Shown: positions 56,486 through 64,000 of the stretch, in pieces | Numbering within the stretch: the first letter of the stretch is position 1 | How the letters are laid out: every line of letters starts with the position of its first letter | Assembly: GCF_000739635.1 (NCBI RefSeq) | Contig: NZ_BATQ01000019.1 | Location: 1-64,000 of the forward strand | Length of the DNA stretch: 64,000 bases | Direction of reading: 5' to 3' | Source of the DNA: Verrucomicrobium sp. BvORR034 | Lineage (GTDB): Bacteria > Verrucomicrobiota > Verrucomicrobiia > Verrucomicrobiales > Verrucomicrobiaceae | Made by a program: the position numbers and the translations under genes | Notes under the pieces: generated by a model | Seen by the model: only the letters and a program-made list of their open reading frames with translations | What the model was told of the DNA's origin: nothing | Database searches by the model: none

Positions 56486-56603
56486 TCCAGTAATTTGGTG
56501 AACCATTGGGCGCATTCGTGTGCGGAACTGTATGGAGTCCAGCCTTCAGGCTGTGTATTTTCATTCAGGAATTGAACGCGCGCCCGGCTCCCGTCCAAGG
56601 AGC

Positions 56604-56630
56604 GGCGGTTTGTGCATCGAGACAACCGCC
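56604..56630. repeat. 9-bp stem-loop with one bulged base
   Basis: GGCGGTTTGT pairs with ACAACCGCC, leaving an eight-base loop and one unpaired T. It lies in a non-coding stretch between the transferase gene and the hydrolase remnant, and resembles dispersed REP-like palindromes. Confidence 0.6.
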
Positions 56631-56799
56631 GATGGTCGAACAGAGTGAGGGGGGCCGCAGAAGACTGAAAGTACTCATGGCCCGTCCGTTTCGCATGGTT
56701 GGGGGAGAGGACTGCATCCTTAAGCGCCTCATTCTCCTGTAGATGTTGTGCGAAATTCTTCACCCATGCTCAAACACTGTCACCATCTTGAAGCGCCTG

Positions 56800-56990
56800 C
56801 AGAAAGAAGGCGGCTACCAAGTGGTGGCCAGACACGGCACCGAGGATGAAGTGATCCCCGTGGCGATGGGGCGCAAGCTGGGTCAGTTATTTCCTGATGT
56901 TGTGAAGTATGAGGATATTAAGGGGGCGCGGCACCACGGATACGGACAAGGTGCACGCGGCGCTGGAGATGGTGAGATGAGGGGGCAATC
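56800..56990 (+). pseudogene. Decayed alpha/beta-hydrolase C-terminal fragment
   Basis: Translation of this stretch reads ARHGTEDEVIPVAMGRKLGQ, followed by LFPDVVKYEDIKGARH, which is the typical C-terminal segment of alpha/beta hydrolases (the HGTxDxVIP loop carrying the catalytic Asp, then a late His). Upstream the expected catalytic Ser and oxyanion region are missing, and the open frame begins in unrelated sequence at 56743. After GARHHG the frame appears to shift. It is therefore a remnant, not a working gene. Confidence 0.6.
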
Positions 56991-57071
56991 GGGGATATTT
57001 AGCCAATTCGAAGCGAAATTAGGTCGGGCGTTGCCCAGCCGGATTGTGCGAATAATTTATCATTCTGCGAG

Positions 57072-57100
57072 TTGATATAGGTTAAATGCTGATGTATATA
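57072..57100 (+). promoter_or_regulatory. Sigma70-like promoter for the RCC1-RHS gene
   Basis: A -35 element TTGATA (57072-57077), 17-base spacer, and TATATA -10 (57095-57100). Transcription would start around 57107, about six bases before the ATG, giving a very short or leaderless 5' end. No other good promoter is seen in the AT-rich patch. Confidence 0.6.
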
Positions 57101-57112
57101 GGTAAAAAACGT

Positions 57113-60100
57113 ATGTTCTCAATTAGACATCTTTGCGAGTGTTGGTTCCCTTCTTATTCTGTTGGAGGAAGACTTTCCCGAAAGCCGGTTGAAAAAATCA
57201 TCTATATTCAATCACAAATAGGCCAAATTCTAATCGGCCTATTGATATCTTTGCTGCCGGTCTCTCTTTGCGGGCAAAATTCTGGGGAACAACAACGAGT
57301 GTCTGCGGGTTCCTCTGCATCGGCAGTAATCGATCACCTGGGAAGAGTTTGGACTTGTGGGGGTAACACACATGGTCAGTTGGGAAACAACTCATTGGTA
57401 GCATCTGCCGCCCCAGCTTTGTCTCTGATGGCTGACGCTGTCGCAGTTTGTACCAGAGGCGACTCTATGATTGCTCTGAAAGAGGATGGGACGGTGTGGA
57501 CTTGGGGAGCGATCGGAGCTGTTCATCTGGGCAACTTGTCGAGCGCTTCCAGTTCAATCCCACTCGAGGTGCCGGGATTGACCGACGTAGTGAAAATTGC
57601 TACAGGCGGCACCCATTTTCTCGCCTTGAAATCTGACGGATCGGTCTGGGCTTGGGGCCTCAATTACTTTGGAAAACTGGGGGATGGCTCGCAAAATTGG
57701 CGCCCCCTTCCCTTCCAAATTCCAGGACTGTCGGATGTGACCTCTATCGCAGCAGGTGCCGAACACAGTATGGCCTTGAAAAGCAATGGGGATGTACTTG
57801 CATGGGGCGCAAACAGTTCCGGAGAGTTGGGCGATGGTACAAACACTATGCGGTTGTCGCCAGCGCTTGTTGCAGGTGCCCATGCGGCAGTGGCCATCTC
57901 AGCGGGAGGATCTAGTAGTGCCATGATCGATAGCGCTGGCGTTGTCCTTGTTTGGGGGGCACGCTTTCCATACAGTGCAAATGTTCCACAGTCGCTACAC
58001 GGCCTGGAGGGGGCGGTTTCGGTCTCCTGCGGAAGTGGTTTTGGATTCGTCCGCTTAAACGATGGCAGCTATTGGGCTTGGGGTGCTAATCAATATGGCC
58101 AATTGGGCGTGGCCGCACCGATGGCGTCGATGAGTGGAACACCATATACAAATTCACCCGTTAGAATATCAGCAGATCGCCCGCTAGTATCGATCGATGC
58201 GGGCCCGCTCAACGCTATTGCTGTGGCGGATGATGGTACAATCTGGAGTTGGGGAAAGAAGCAGGATTTGCTCGGACGTCTATTCATTACAAACACGGCC
58301 GATCCGGTGTATTCCTTGGGCGACGTGCGCTACAGTCAACTTGCTGCGGGAGGTCAACATGGAGTTGCGTTGGACAAATCAAGTGAAATCTGGTCCTGGG
58401 GCGGCAACGGTTCTGGTCAGCTGGGACGAGGGCACAAAGTTGACATCGATAAAGCCGAAAAGTTGCCCGATTTTAGTGGCATAAAATCGGTTACAGCAGG
58501 GGTGGATCGATCACTGGCGCTCAAGCAAGATGGGACGATCTGGGCTTGGGGTGCCAATCCGCGTAACATATTGGGCACTGGTATGGTTTCGCCAACTCTC
58601 GATTCTCCTGCGCAAGTCTTGGATCTTCTGGATGTTGAGGCGCTCTATGGCGGATACTATCGTTCGCTGGCGAAAAAACGTGACGGCACGTTTTGGGAGT
58701 GGGGCATAAGGTCAACTGTCATAAGTCAAGTGATCGGGTTGCTCAATGCAAAGGATGTTTACGTAGGATATGATCACTATGTGGTGGTAGACACAGGAGG
58801 CCAACTTTGGACTTGGGGAGATAATGCTTCAGGTCAACTTGGAAACGGATCAACAACGGCTCAGACAACTCCGGCTGCAATCAGCATGAGTGGGCTCGTA
58901 TCGAAAGCTGCAGCTGGGAGAAATTTCTCGCTAGCAAGGTTGTCAAACGGGACTGTATGGGCGTGGGGAAACAACCAATACGGTCGATTGGGGGTGGCCG
59001 TCGCTCCTGGCGCCACTTCGCCGCAGCAATTGTCTGGCATTGCTAATGCGGTGGATGTATTCGCAGGGGGGTGCCACAGCTTGGCAACAACAAGCGCCGG
59101 AGGCCTCTACGTTTGGGGGCGGAACGATCGAGGACAGCTCGGCACGGGAGATTACGTCGATCAGCCAACTCCAACACTGTCGGCCTTCTCGGGCCGAGTA
59201 AAGTCAATTAGCGCCTCGGACTCTGCCACTTTGGTATTGAAGGAAGATGGGACCCTTGCTGCATGGGGGGCGACTGACGTTAATCAGATAGGGGAGAGTG
59301 TGAATGCTCGCTCCAACGCTCTGCCGGATCTGGCATATTCTGATGTTAACACTTTCTACGCGCGCCCTGAGATCGAAATCATAGCGCCATCAACGGATGT
59401 AACGGTTCTAGTGGGAGATTCTGTTTTGATCCATGGTGAATTCGTGAATGCTGCACAAGCGCCTCATACGATGGCATTCTACCAGTACGGCGTACTTATT
59501 GGAGAGGACGATTCGGCACCATTCGTTTTGAACTTTAGACCTCAAACGTGGGGAAAATTTGTGGTGCATGCAGTCGGCCGAGATTCTTCAGGAGCTCCCA
59601 GCGCGTCTTCGAATTCTATCGTGGTCAATGTTCCCTATGATGGTGACAGTGACGGGCTTCCTGATTGGTGGGAAATTCACTATTTCAACAGTCTTGGTGC
59701 TGCTTTCGGAGGGGATCCTGATCGTGACGGCTATTCGAATGGCCAGGAGTACGCCGCGGGCACTGACCCCTTGGGCATGTCTGCCCCAAGCGTACCGTCA
59801 GGAACTGTTCCCGCCATTCCATGGGTTGGGAATCAACCTGGAACCAATTCAGGAGGTCCGGGTTCTGGCGCGAACCTTCCAAGCGCCGTCGCCCCGGGCT
59901 CCCCTGAGGTCGCTTCGTTTGAGGATATCACTGCGCCGCCGCTAGGACCAAGCGGCAAAGGCGAGGTTCTCGAGCTTCAGTACCAAATGGGTTTGCGCAC
60001 TTTTTTGAGGGTTGACTATGATTTCGTAAACGGATGGAACGACACCTTTTGGGCTGATTGTACGCTGTGGGTTGATCCTACCAATGTCGTGCCCCCTGGC

Positions 60101-63100
60101 ACTATCGGCGATGGAACCATTCTTCCGATGTACATGGGTGCGACTTGGAGCGAGGTGGGAGATGAGACGAATGGACGTGTTTCGGAGGCTCTCTCCAATC
60201 GTGCCGACTACAGTGAACCTTCTCCGATTTACGAAGAGGAGGGTAATCCCTTTACCGAACTCATTGGCTGGAACACAAGGACGGAGTATCAGTATACCGA
60301 ATGGAAAAATGTTCGTGCGGCACTTCCGGAGCCTGCCAGCCGGTGGCGCTACTACTATTACAACAAGGTAAGGTACACGGACCTTGATCCCTACGGTGCC
60401 CCCGAGATTCTTGAGAAAGTCACTCTGATTATCCCCCCCGGTGAGACATTCAGTGCGCAGCAAGTTGAGCTCAAGGCCAAGGATAGCACGTTGATGGATC
60501 GCGGTGAGTTTGAGCATCTCATCTTGGATCCCATCGACTCCAGCGGCGACTCGGCGCCCGGCTTTCAGATCTCCGCATCGGATGCTGCTGGTCCCTCCTA
60601 TCGCAAGGTGGGTCTCAACGGCATGCCGTTGTCAGACAGCAAACCCCAGAGCAAGGACGAGAGCGGAGAACTCCCTGAGGAAACGTTTGTTGATGCCTTT
60701 ACGCGCCAGCTCAATCATGTCGTCAGCGATGTGTACTCGGCGGCGGACAGCAGCCTGCTGCCCCTCGTGGTGCGCCGCAGCGCCAGGGAGCACACGTGGA
60801 ACTTGCGCAGCGGGCTGCGTCCCTCGGAATTTCCGGACGCCCCGTTCGGCCCGGGCTGGTCCTCCAATCTGTGTGCCAACATTCGCTTTGAAGACAACTT
60901 CCGCAAGGCGGTGGTGACCGATGAACAGGGGGCGAGCACTGTGTTCTACCGTTCGCTGCCCACCTTGCTCCCCGAAGAACCGGGCGATCCTCACGTCTGG
61001 ATTCACTCCCGCGAAGAAAAGCAGGATGCCCGCACCGCCTACGACACCCTGGAAACCCTCCGAAATGGCAGCAACCAGGTGGTGGGGTTCAAGTACAGCA
61101 AAAAGTACGGCACCGTTTGCACTTATGAGCTGACCCCCATCATCCAGAAGTTCAGCAGTGACCGCGAGGATGGCAGCTACAAGGCGCTGGAGTTGCGCTA
61201 TGCCAGGCTGACCAAGGCAGAGGATCGCTGGAACAACGAGATTCAATACACCTATCCTTCCAACACCACGCTGATCCCGAACAAGATCCACGACCCGGAC
61301 CGCCCCAACCAGGTGGTCACTCTCACGCAAAACAACGGGGTGGTCACCGCCGTGCGTGGTCCCTCGGGTGAAACGGTGTCCTACTCCTACACGCTCCTGA
61401 ATGCGGGCGACGATCAGGCCCGCTGCCTGACCTCCGTTCAACGAGGCGGGAACAGCGTGCAGTATGCTTACCAGACCGTCATTGAATCCACTCCTCCAAG
61501 TGATGCGGACCCTGACGGGCCTCCGGCCCCGGATCACCGGCACCTCAATGTCGTGGGGATCACGGATGAACGGGGTGCCGACTATGACTTTGAGTACGAG
61601 TTCAATCACGGCAACAAGTACCTGGAGGTCTCCGGTGCCGCGTTTCGCCTCCGCAGTCAGTTGGGCCTGCCCCGGTTGCTGAAAAAGATCACTCTGCCTG
61701 ACAACGCGGTCGTCAACGTCAGCGGGACCCGCGACATCCGGACCCAGGCCAATGCCACGCTCAGCACCGCGGACATTCAGACAATCGTCAGTGGGGCCTG
61801 CGGCACCTACACTTTCACCTTCACGCTGCCGGATGTGTTTGTGCCTCTCCAGAATGATCCCGGAAAGGAGCAGGACCCGTACAGCAAGCAGCTCACCGTC
61901 TTCTTCAGCCGCATGGAGATCGACACCCCGGAAGGAGACGAGGTCTACAACTTCGACTTCGACCACGGCATGGCGCTCAGCTCGGCCACGGATATTAGTG
62001 GAAACACCACCACCTTCCATTATGGCACCGTGGGATCCAACGGCCTGGGCTGGGATGATCCCATCCAGCAGGTCAATGCCCTGGGCAAGAGCCGGTACTT
62101 CACCTATGACAATGACACCCGGGTCATGAAGTCAATGACCGATGAGCGGGGCACGCTGACCAGCTACACGATTCAATCGGGCACCGGACTGCGAACCAAG
62201 GAAACCATCAGCAAGGGTGTCTCGACCCTGAAGGTCACTGACTTCGACTACGGTGCTGGTGGCTTTGCCGGGTTCCTGGCCAAGACTACCGTGCAGAGCA
62301 CCACGGCCACCGGGGGCGACCTGATCACTGAGTACACCCCCGATGCCAATGGCCGGGTCCAGAAGGAATCGGTCACGGCCGGAGGTGGCATCGAACTGGT
62401 CACCAGCTACACCTACACGGGCAACGGCAGCAAGAAGACCGTCACCAATCCGCGCGGGCACACCACCACCTTCACCTACGACGCCCAGAGCCTCCGGCTC
62501 ACGGGCGTGGAGAACCCCGACAGCACCACGCGCACTCTGGGCTACGACGCCCATGGCAACCTCACCAGCGAGGTCAATGAACGCGGGGTCACGACCACGC
62601 ACGAGTATGACTCCTTGAACCGGCGCAAGAAGTCCACCGTGGACATGGATGACGGGGCCGACCTGGTGAGTGAAACCACCTACACGGCGCTGAACCTGCC
62701 GCACACGGAAACCGACCCGCGCGGCACGGTCACCACCCACACCTATGACGGCATTGGCCGTCGTCTCACCACCACGGTGGGCAGCGGCGGGGACGCCCAG
62801 ACCACGACCTACACCTACGGGGCCAACAGCGGGGGCAGCGTCTTTGATGTGAGCGGGTTCAAGCCCACCACCATCACCGATCCCCGTGGCAAGGTGACCA
62901 CCATCACCTATGACGACCTCTACCGGCCCACGGTCAAACAGGCGCCGGAAGGCAACACCGTCACCACCACCTATGACGACGCGGGCAACCCCGAGGAGGT
63001 CAAGGATGCGCTCAACCGCATCACCAAGACCACCTTTGACGGCCTGAACCGTCCCACCAAGGTGGAGTATCCCGATGCCACCACCCGGCACTCTTACTAC

Positions 63101-64000
63101 ACACCCTCCGGCCTGGTCTGGAAGGTGGTGGATGAGCTGGGTCGTGAAACCCTCACCCAGTATGACCGGGCCGGTCGGGCTGTGGAGGTGACGCTGCCTG
63201 AGGTCAACGGAGTCAGCCCAGTGACCAAGACCGCCTATGACGCCAATGGCAATGTCATTGCCGTGCAGGATCCTCTGGGGAACATCGTCACCACGGTTTA
63301 TGACAACCGGAACCGCCCCACCAAGGTGACCTCCCCATACATCTGGGATGCCCTGGAGGGCCAGTGGTCCCGGCCGGAGGTGAACACCACCTATGACGCC
63401 GGAGGCAACGTGCTCACGGTCACCGACCCTCTGGGCAAGGTCACCACCAAGACCTACAACAACGCCGGCTGGGGACTCACTGTGACCAATGCCCTGGGCC
63501 AGGTGACCGCTTCCACCTACGATCGCAACGGCAACGTCAAGACGGTGACCGATGCGCTCAACCGCGTCGTGACCAACACCTATGACATCCACAACCGCCT
63601 CACCGAGACGGAGGACGCGGAGGAGCAGATCACCGGGTTTGGATATGACAAGAACGGCAACCGGACCTCGGTGACCGATCCGCGGGGCAAGGTGACCACG
63701 TTCACCTATGACGACTTGAACCGGCTGCTCAAAGAAACGTTCCAGGAGGGCGTGTGGACCGAGCGGCACTACGATGCCCTTCGTGAAACCTCCCGGGAGG
63801 ACAGTGCGGGGCGTGAGTTCACCTTTGGGTATGACCTGCGAGACCGTCTCACCACCACGACCTGGACGGTGGGTGGCAGCCCGGTGGTGCGCACCCGGGT
63901 CTATGATACTGCGGGCCGTCTCACCGATGTGACCGAGACCGGGCGTCCCGAGGCCACGGTGGGCTACACCTATGATGCCCTTGACCGGGTGGCCACGGAA
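57113..64000 (+). CDS. Giant RCC1-repeat / Ig-like / RHS (YD-repeat) surface protein, partial
   Basis: At least 2296 codons, open to the right edge of the window. Residues 1-55 are basic with a hydrophobic core (IGQILIGLLISLLPVSLC), a signal or anchor. Residues about 60-740 hold about 14 RCC1-like repeats (WTWGANxxGQLG-type, spaced about 49 residues); for example WAWGANQYGQLG and WTWGDNASGQLG. An Ig-like domain follows (about 745-840), then a Ca-type loop DGDSDGLPDWWE, a linker, and a long RHS/YD-repeat shell with TYDDLYRPTV and YDxxGN-type units from about 1620 to the end. RHS shells enclose a C-terminal toxin, which would lie outside the window. The RCC1 part is distinctly lower in GC than the YD core. 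ATG is the only sensible start, near a short leader. Confidence 0.85.
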   Translation, partial: MFSIRHLCECWFPSYSVGGRLSRKPVEKIIYIQSQIGQILIGLLISLLPVSLCGQNSGEQQRVSAGSSASAVIDHLGRVWTCGGNTHGQLGNNSLVASAAPALSLMADAVAVCTRGDSMIALKEDGTVWTWGAIGAVHLGNLSSASSSIPLEVPGLTDVVKIATGGTHFLALKSDGSVWAWGLNYFGKLGDGSQNWRPLPFQIPGLSDVTSIAAGAEHSMALKSNGDVLAWGANSSGELGDGTNTMRLSPALVAGAHAAVAISAGGSSSAMIDSAGVVLVWGARFPYSANVPQSLHGLEGAVSVSCGSGFGFVRLNDGSYWAWGANQYGQLGVAAPMASMSGTPYTNSPVRISADRPLVSIDAGPLNAIAVADDGTIWSWGKKQDLLGRLFITNTADPVYSLGDVRYSQLAAGGQHGVALDKSSEIWSWGGNGSGQLGRGHKVDIDKAEKLPDFSGIKSVTAGVDRSLALKQDGTIWAWGANPRNILGTGMVSPTLDSPAQVLDLLDVEALYGGYYRSLAKKRDGTFWEWGIRSTVISQVIGLLNAKDVYVGYDHYVVVDTGGQLWTWGDNASGQLGNGSTTAQTTPAAISMSGLVSKAAAGRNFSLARLSNGTVWAWGNNQYGRLGVAVAPGATSPQQLSGIANAVDVFAGGCHSLATTSAGGLYVWGRNDRGQLGTGDYVDQPTPTLSAFSGRVKSISASDSATLVLKEDGTLAAWGATDVNQIGESVNARSNALPDLAYSDVNTFYARPEIEIIAPSTDVTVLVGDSVLIHGEFVNAAQAPHTMAFYQYGVLIGEDDSAPFVLNFRPQTWGKFVVHAVGRDSSGAPSASSNSIVVNVPYDGDSDGLPDWWEIHYFNSLGAAFGGDPDRDGYSNGQEYAAGTDPLGMSAPSVPSGTVPAIPWVGNQPGTNSGGPGSGANLPSAVAPGSPEVASFEDITAPPLGPSGKGEVLELQYQMGLRTFLRVDYDFVNGWNDTFWADCTLWVDPTNVVPPGTIGDGTILPMYMGATWSEVGDETNGRVSEALSNRADYSEPSPIYEEEGNPFTELIGWNTRTEYQYTEWKNVRAALPEPASRWRYYYYNKVRYTDLDPYGAPEILEKVTLIIPPGETFSAQQVELKAKDSTLMDRGEFEHLILDPIDSSGDSAPGFQISASDAAGPSYRKVGLNGMPLSDSKPQSKDESGELPEETFVDAFTRQLNHVVSDVYSAADSSLLPLVVRRSAREHTWNLRSGLRPSEFPDAPFGPGWSSNLCANIRFEDNFRKAVVTDEQGASTVFYRSLPTLLPEEPGDPHVWIHSREEKQDARTAYDTLETLRNGSNQVVGFKYSKKYGTVCTYELTPIIQKFSSDREDGSYKALELRYARLTKAEDRWNNEIQYTYPSNTTLIPNKIHDPDRPNQVVTLTQNNGVVTAVRGPSGETVSYSYTLLNAGDDQARCLTSVQRGGNSVQYAYQTVIESTPPSDADPDGPPAPDHRHLNVVGITDERGADYDFEYEFNHGNKYLEVSGAAFRLRSQLGLPRLLKKITLPDNAVVNVSGTRDIRTQANATLSTADIQTIVSGACGTYTFTFTLPDVFVPLQNDPGKEQDPYSKQLTVFFSRMEIDTPEGDEVYNFDFDHGMALSSATDISGNTTTFHYGTVGSNGLGWDDPIQQVNALGKSRYFTYDNDTRVMKSMTDERGTLTSYTIQSGTGLRTKETISKGVSTLKVTDFDYGAGGFAGFLAKTTVQSTTATGGDLITEYTPDANGRVQKESVTAGGGIELVTSYTYTGNGSKKTVTNPRGHTTTFTYDAQSLRLTGVENPDSTTRTLGYDAHGNLTSEVNERGVTTTHEYDSLNRRKKSTVDMDDGADLVSETTYTALNLPHTETDPRGTVTTHTYDGIGRRLTTTVGSGGDAQTTTYTYGANSGGSVFDVSGFKPTTITDPRGKVTTITYDDLYRPTVKQAPEGNTVTTTYDDAGNPEEVKDALNRITKTTFDGLNRPTKVEYPDATTRHSYYTPSGLVWKVVDELGRETLTQYDRAGRAVEVTLPEVNGVSPVTKTAYDANGNVIAVQDPLGNIVTTVYDNRNRPTKVTSPYIWDALEGQWSRPEVNTTYDAGGNVLTVTDPLGKVTTKTYNNAGWGLTVTNALGQVTASTYDRNGNVKTVTDALNRVVTNTYDIHNRLTETEDAEEQITGFGYDKNGNRTSVTDPRGKVTTFTYDDLNRLLKETFQEGVWTERHYDALRETSREDSAGREFTFGYDLRDRLTTTTWTVGGSPVVRTRVYDTAGRLTDVTETGRPEATVGYTYDALDRVATE

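What the first reader, a model, noticed from the sequence alone, without database searches (positions are those of the whole stretch)
57113..64000. RHS giant with about 14 RCC1 units, possibly two seven-bladed propellers, and mosaic GC content
About 14 RCC1-like repeats can be counted from about 57350 to 59270 at near-regular 147-base spacing, which would form two seven-bladed propellers on top of an Ig-like domain and a YD-repeat shell. RCC1 heads on RHS shells are unusual; the lower-GC head against the GC-rich YD core points to module shuffling. The toxin tip and immunity gene must lie beyond the right edge.
Basis: partly seen in the sequence, partly recalled or inferred. Interest (0 to 1): 0.6.

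Follow-up and report, generated by a model that had tools for sequence, protein, structure and literature searches.

The report
Toxin shell with double RCC1 head
A bacterium of the genus Verrucomicrobium carries a giant exported gene that joins a head of two seven-bladed RCC1 propellers to the hollow shell of an Rhs-type toxin, and comparison with relatives shows that both the head and the toxin tip of such genes are exchanged as modules around a nearly identical shell core.

Summary
The gene at 57113-64000 encodes a Sec-type leader, exactly 14 RCC1 repeats (57299-59350), an Ig-like domain, a TSP3-like motif, a linker, and a YD/RHS shell that runs off the contig (ends C182:64774). The structure model gives two separate seven-bladed propellers, each matching UVR8 at 1.8 A over about 330 residues. 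Fourteen is the fixed number in all eight RCC1 proteins examined in the genus, and RCC1 arrays in the order cluster at 7 and 14. In relatives the same shell entry carries TSP3-type heads instead, and at one syntenic locus both head and tip differ between two species. Complete relatives end in variable tips; one has PT-HINT, a URI-nuclease-like tip and an Imm26 immunity gene. This gene's own tip is not in the assembly. Best read as a Sec-exported polymorphic toxin resembling teneurin-like proteins in layout, with a head I did not find described on an Rhs shell: a new variant of a known kind.

The parts
57113..64000 (+). RCC1-RHS giant gene, cut by the window; the contig continues to 64774 still open (2554 aa in all)
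57113..57274 (+). N-terminal leader with a hydrophobic stretch (IGQILIGLLISLLPVSLCG), Sec-type signal by inspection
   Evidence: sequence; the relatives' leaders are similar in kind; no signal-peptide predictor was available
57299..58324 (+). RCC1 blades 1-7, first seven-bladed propeller
   Evidence: model residues 2-340 on UVR8, Z 46.9, rmsd 1.8 A
58325..59350 (+). RCC1 blades 8-14, second seven-bladed propeller
   Evidence: model residues 349-684 on UVR8, Z 48.2, rmsd 1.8 A
59366..59545 (+). Ig-like domain (Big_7)
   Evidence: E=3e-4; profile A1 also meets a bacterial Ig structure, E=0.0012
59633..59812 (+). TSP3-like motif with the conserved LPDWWE signature
   Evidence: TSP3_bac E=8e-4; conserved in A1
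59813..60463 (+). linker of unknown fold; low GC3
   Evidence: no usable model
60464..61882 (+). shell-entry module, shared with RHS proteins of other genera that carry other heads; weak DUF6531 at 60836-60946
61883..64000 (+). YD-repeat shell core, 93-94% identical in DNA to three paralogues
   Evidence: RHS_repeat and YD_repeat_2x
60467..60467 (.). composition junction: GC3 0.50 to 0.81
   Evidence: maximum-likelihood changepoint
61880..61886 (.). identity junction: about 68% to 94% against C26, G3a and G3b
   Evidence: maximum-likelihood changepoints

Best explanation
The gene encodes a Sec-exported Rhs/YD-shell polymorphic toxin. Shown: 14 RCC1 repeats modelled as two seven-bladed propellers, followed by Ig, TSP3-like, linker and YD-shell sequence; complete relatives go on through an Rhs-associated core (DPxG...DPxG) into a variable tip with a small gene behind it. 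Inferred: the shell encloses the tip, the tip is released by autocleavage at the core end, and the double propeller sits outside the shell as the binding face that decides what the protein touches. The gene evolves as three exchangeable blocks (head, shell entry plus core, tip); recombination through the near-identical core, and upstream of the start codon, lets heads and tips be swapped independently.
For: Domain calls. Two propellers in the model, Z 47-48 on UVR8. Fixed 14 blades in eight relatives and 7/14 quantisation in the order, 24 arrays of 14 and 12 of 7 among 43. Shell matched to solved Rhs effectors and a bacterial teneurin-like protein, E 1e-20 to 1e-11. Relatives' tips: PT-HINT E=1e-19 plus Imm26 E=6e-6 next door, and PT-TG E=5e-8. 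The tip of G3a carries the Y, YxG, R, RxxE, N residues that PMC3482391 lists for Tox-URI1, for which it names Imm26, HINT and RHS. Sharp junctions. Core under strong constraint, dN/dS 0.06-0.08. Head exchange: the TSP3-headed relative L086 shares linker and shell entry; the C26 locus has both flanks of the G3b locus (94.9% over 3.3 kb, 90.1% over 17.5 kb) but a gene 89% like G3a and a tip unlike either. A 328-base identical run between G3a and G3b points to recent conversion in the core.
Against: This gene's own core end, tip and immunity gene are not in the assembly. No model of the linker or shell was obtained (pLDDT 28), so the geometry of head and shell is unknown. No ligand of the head is known, and no sign of positive selection was found in the blades (dN/dS 0.14-0.22), so the receptor-binding role rests on analogy. 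Export through Sec is inferred from the leader only.
Confidence: 0.75

Rival explanations
1. A surface adhesin: the double propeller, Ig and TSP3-like parts form a cell-surface binding protein, and the YD shell is a structural body whose tip has little or no toxic role, as teneurins became in animals.
For: Sec-type leader; RCC1-Ig-TSP3 proteins without any shell are common in the order; bacterial teneurin-like proteins also carry adhesion domains (PMC13018210).
Against: Complete relatives end in pretoxin domains, one with an Imm26 neighbour, and differ completely in their last 250-350 residues; an adhesin would not need immunity genes.
Confidence: 0.15
2. A decaying or silent Rhs relic whose head was acquired by chance, cut by the contig end only because the core is repeated in the genome.
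For: The contig ends inside a repeated core; a loose core fragment lies near the C181 tip.
Against: 2554 codons without a stop; dN/dS 0.06 in the core against C26; domain order kept in G3a and G3b.
Confidence: 0.07
3. The GC step reflects amino-acid composition or selection on the RCC1 fold rather than separate histories of the modules.
For: The heads of G3a, G3b, C26 and C135 are also low in GC3.
Against: GC3 is largely free of amino-acid constraint; the RCC1 array of C169 in the same genome has GC3 0.84; the step falls at the start of the shell entry (codon 1118), not at the end of RCC1 (codon 746).
Confidence: 0.1

Closest known systems
Bacterial teneurin-like proteins (PMC13018210; PDB 9pt5, 9ifo)
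   Same: Exported, variable N-terminal adhesion modules, a propeller before a YD shell, core-end motif and variable tip; the shell matches by sequence, E about 1e-11
   Different: Their propeller is a single six-bladed NHL domain behind an FN-plug, part of an invariant superfold; here there are two seven-bladed RCC1 propellers ahead of Ig, TSP3-like and linker; that paper's survey reported six phyla, none of them Verrucomicrobiota
Enterobacterial Rhs proteins and T6SS Rhs effectors (PMC2935791; PDB 8cp6, 8qja, 7q97)
   Same: Clade-specific head, GC-rich core, low-GC exchangeable tip; shell E 1e-20 to 1e-13
   Different: No PAAR or VgrG family was called in this gene; a Sec-type leader and RCC1 head instead
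Tc toxin TcB-TcC shell
   Same: Propeller next to a YD shell that holds a variable toxin tip (general knowledge and PMC3482391)
   Different: Two proteins, with SpvB and an integrin-like propeller; no such domain was called here
RCC1-Ig-TSP3 proteins of Verrucomicrobiales without a shell (C135, G007, G094)
   Same: An RCC1 head (14 blades in C135) followed by the same Ig and LPDWW part
   Different: They lack the shell entry and YD repeats

Membership tests
Rhs/YD-repeat polymorphic toxin | tandem YD repeats forming a shell | tested here: met
   RHS_repeat E=1e-63, 14 stretches over the full frame; solved Rhs shells match by sequence
Rhs/YD-repeat polymorphic toxin | Rhs-associated core end with DPxG motif | tested here: inconclusive
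   beyond the contig end for this gene; present in G3a, G3b, G3c and C181
Rhs/YD-repeat polymorphic toxin | variable toxin tip plus adjacent immunity gene | tested here: inconclusive
   missing from the assembly for this gene; met in G3a with PT-HINT and Imm26
RCC1 superfamily, seven-bladed propellers | seven RCC1 blades closing into one propeller | tested here: met
   two of them in the model; Z 47-48, rmsd 1.8 A on UVR8
Bacterial teneurin-like protein | FN-plug plus NHL propeller immediately before the YD shell | tested here: inconclusive
   no NHL or FN-plug family was called, but the linker could not be modelled
T6SS Rhs effector | PAAR, VgrG or prePAAR/TMD head | tested here: inconclusive
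   no PAAR or VgrG family in the Pfam and NCBIfam scans; T6SS genes were not searched for
Tc toxin TcB | SpvB domain and integrin-like propeller | tested here: not met
   not called by Pfam; the head is RCC1

The most novel reading that the evidence does not exclude
A doubly polymorphic toxin class: in one genus the shell core is kept nearly identical while two ends are exchanged independently, the toxin tip as in other Rhs genes and also the whole recognition head (double RCC1 propellers of several divergent types, or TSP3 arrays), so that targeting and killing specificity are shuffled as separate cassettes.
Probability: 0.4. Interest if true: 0.6.

Novelty: new variant of a known kind. Interest (0 to 1): 0.42.

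Why it matters
Propellers next to YD shells recur in Tc toxins and teneurins. A third type (two RCC1 propellers) found as an exchangeable head offers a natural test of whether the propeller sets the target, and shows how Rhs genes may acquire new targets while keeping the same shell.

Tried and rejected
Model of residues 841-1649 from two sequences: pLDDT 28, not usable and not searched. Search for this gene's missing tip: core DNA in the genome occurs only in C26, C182 and weakly C69; the orphan core end C181 belongs to C26 by synteny of both flanks; the C30 contig end, which follows frr by synteny with G003, holds no Rhs sequence. Whole-propeller duplication: blade identity does not peak at offset 7 in this gene. 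Positive selection in the blades: not seen in C26 against G3a. Plasmid records: no match to the junction. Viral contigs: RCC1 arrays are common, mostly of 7, but none of the fetched ORFs of 300 aa or more carried five YD motifs. Twenty stretches fetched around giant RCC1 frames of the order: no frame carried both arrays, though that motif scan is crude. No Rfam hit in the window. A clean empty site at the frr locus could not be drawn: synteny stops at 56486 against both relatives.

Full report
Check of the observation. The frame from 57113 stays open to the window end and to the contig end at C182:64774. Pfam finds RCC1 (E=3e-85), the RCC1-like domain (3e-130) and RHS repeats (1e-63), with weaker Big_7, TSP3_bac and DUF6531 (again on all 2554 aa). 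I delimited 14 consecutive blades at 57299-59350, and a profile built from this and related proteins finds the same 14. Mean start-to-start spacing is about 146 bases; blades 5 and 10 are short and degenerate.

Two propellers. The model of residues 56-850 (8 sequences, mean pLDDT 73, mostly 75-95 over RCC1) matches seven-bladed RCC1 structures twice: model 2-340 on UVR8 (329 residues, 1.8 A, Z 46.9) and model 349-684 on UVR8 (335 residues, 1.8 A, Z 48.2) (Foldseek). Model residue n is protein residue n+55. Independently of the model, all eight RCC1 proteins examined in the genus have 14 blades (one further hit of 0.5 bits in G3c is spurious), and uncut arrays of five or more in the order are 14 (24), 7 (12), 13 (3), 6 (3) and 12 (1), while arrays in viral contigs are mostly 7. 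So arrays come in sevens and fourteen means two propellers. This also shows that a 14-blade head is ordinary in this order.

Where it lives. Contig G001:C16 is the exact reverse complement of NZ_BATR01000194.1, Verrucomicrobium sp. BvORR106, and the window's genome is in the same genus. G003, one contig of 8,220,857 bases, is probably V. spinosum (from memory, not tested). Names used below: C26 is the paralogue in the window's genome (L018); G3a (L039), G3b (L040) and G3c (L041) are RCC1-RHS genes of G003.

Mosaic. GC3 steps from 0.50 to 0.81 at codon 1118 (window 60467). DNA identity to C26, G3a and G3b steps from 66-70% to 93-94% at codons 1590-1592 (about 61880) in all three comparisons, and most of the head is only 23-53% identical in protein. 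Core codon usage is like that of neighbouring housekeeping genes, head usage is not. A low-GC head is not forced by the fold, since the RCC1 array of C169 in the same genome has GC3 0.84. In G3a and G3b composition falls again in the tip. This layout (clade-specific head, GC-rich core, low-GC tip) is the one described for enterobacterial Rhs genes (PMC2935791).

Heads are exchanged. The profile of codons 740-1330 (A1) splits in other genomes into a head-side half (positions about 1-155) found in RCC1-Ig proteins without a shell, and a shell-entry half (about 390-580) found in RHS proteins with other heads; both occur in one frame only in this genus (order; phylum). The frames fetched from other genera carry TSP3-type arrays or short heads. 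Within the genus, L086 has the same linker and shell entry (55% identity over the aligned stretch) behind a TSP3 array. At the locus of G3b, this genome has the same left flank (94.9% over 3.3 kb) and right flank (90.1% over 17.5 kb on C181) but a gene 89% like G3a, with a third, unrelated tip. The switch lies 100-370 bases upstream of the start codon on one side. G3a and G3b share a 328-base identical run in the core.

Tips. Complete relatives continue through the Rhs-associated core into different tips. G3a: PT-HINT, then a tip with the residues listed for Tox-URI1, then a gene with Imm26 (the pairing of Tox-URI1 with Imm26, HINT and RHS is in PMC3482391). No library names the URI-like tip itself, so that step rests on motif and neighbour. 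G3c: PT-TG. G3b and C181 tips: no family, each followed by a small frame. This gene's own tip was not found.

Mechanism. Shown: domain order, two propellers in a model, module junctions, constraint on the core (dN/dS 0.06-0.08), variable tips in relatives. Inferred: Sec export, shell encloses tip, autocleavage, and the head as the binding face. The closest functional likeness is the bacterial teneurin-like protein (PMC13018210), but its defining NHL/FN-plug superfold was not seen here, and the linker could not be modelled. Searches of the held papers for RCC1 with Rhs gave no description of this fusion in what I read; PMC4140846 calls a part of TcdB1 RCC1-like, which is a different protein. 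Most subscription journals are not held, so this is a weak negative.

Noticed in passing
L018 1-11404 (G000:C26), L079 and L278 (G000:C181); G003 L039, L040, L281: A locus with the flanks of G3b carries the G3a-type gene and a third tip: head and tip differ between two species at one site.
   Followed up: yes
L079 2071-3460 (G000:C181): Behind a tip and a lipoprotein-like gene lies a loose 262-base core fragment (93-94% identical to the paralogues' cores), then a frame that looks like a REP-associated transposase (by inspection); the transposase-like frame also lies near G3a and G3b.
   Followed up: partly
L079 230-910: The C181 tip has no family match but shows a DHS...LCACDGG pattern that recalls caspase-like peptidases (by inspection only).
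   Followed up: no
L018 against L039, head codons 208-405: dS in blades 4-7 is 0.79 against 0.32-0.34 in neighbouring blades, which suggests exchange of part of a propeller.
   Followed up: no
L201-L276 (IMG/VR contigs): RCC1 arrays, mostly of seven blades, are common in contigs classed as viral, often several genes in a row.
   Followed up: partly
L166 5777-18770 (G048): A 14-blade RCC1 gene without a shell is followed directly by an RHS gene with a different tip: the two modules as neighbours, not fused.
   Followed up: partly
window 56487-57112: Synteny with both relatives ends at 56486; a low-GC stretch follows with a frame (56743-57075) that looks like a hydrolase remnant, part of which (56783-56932) is still found in G001.
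   Followed up: partly
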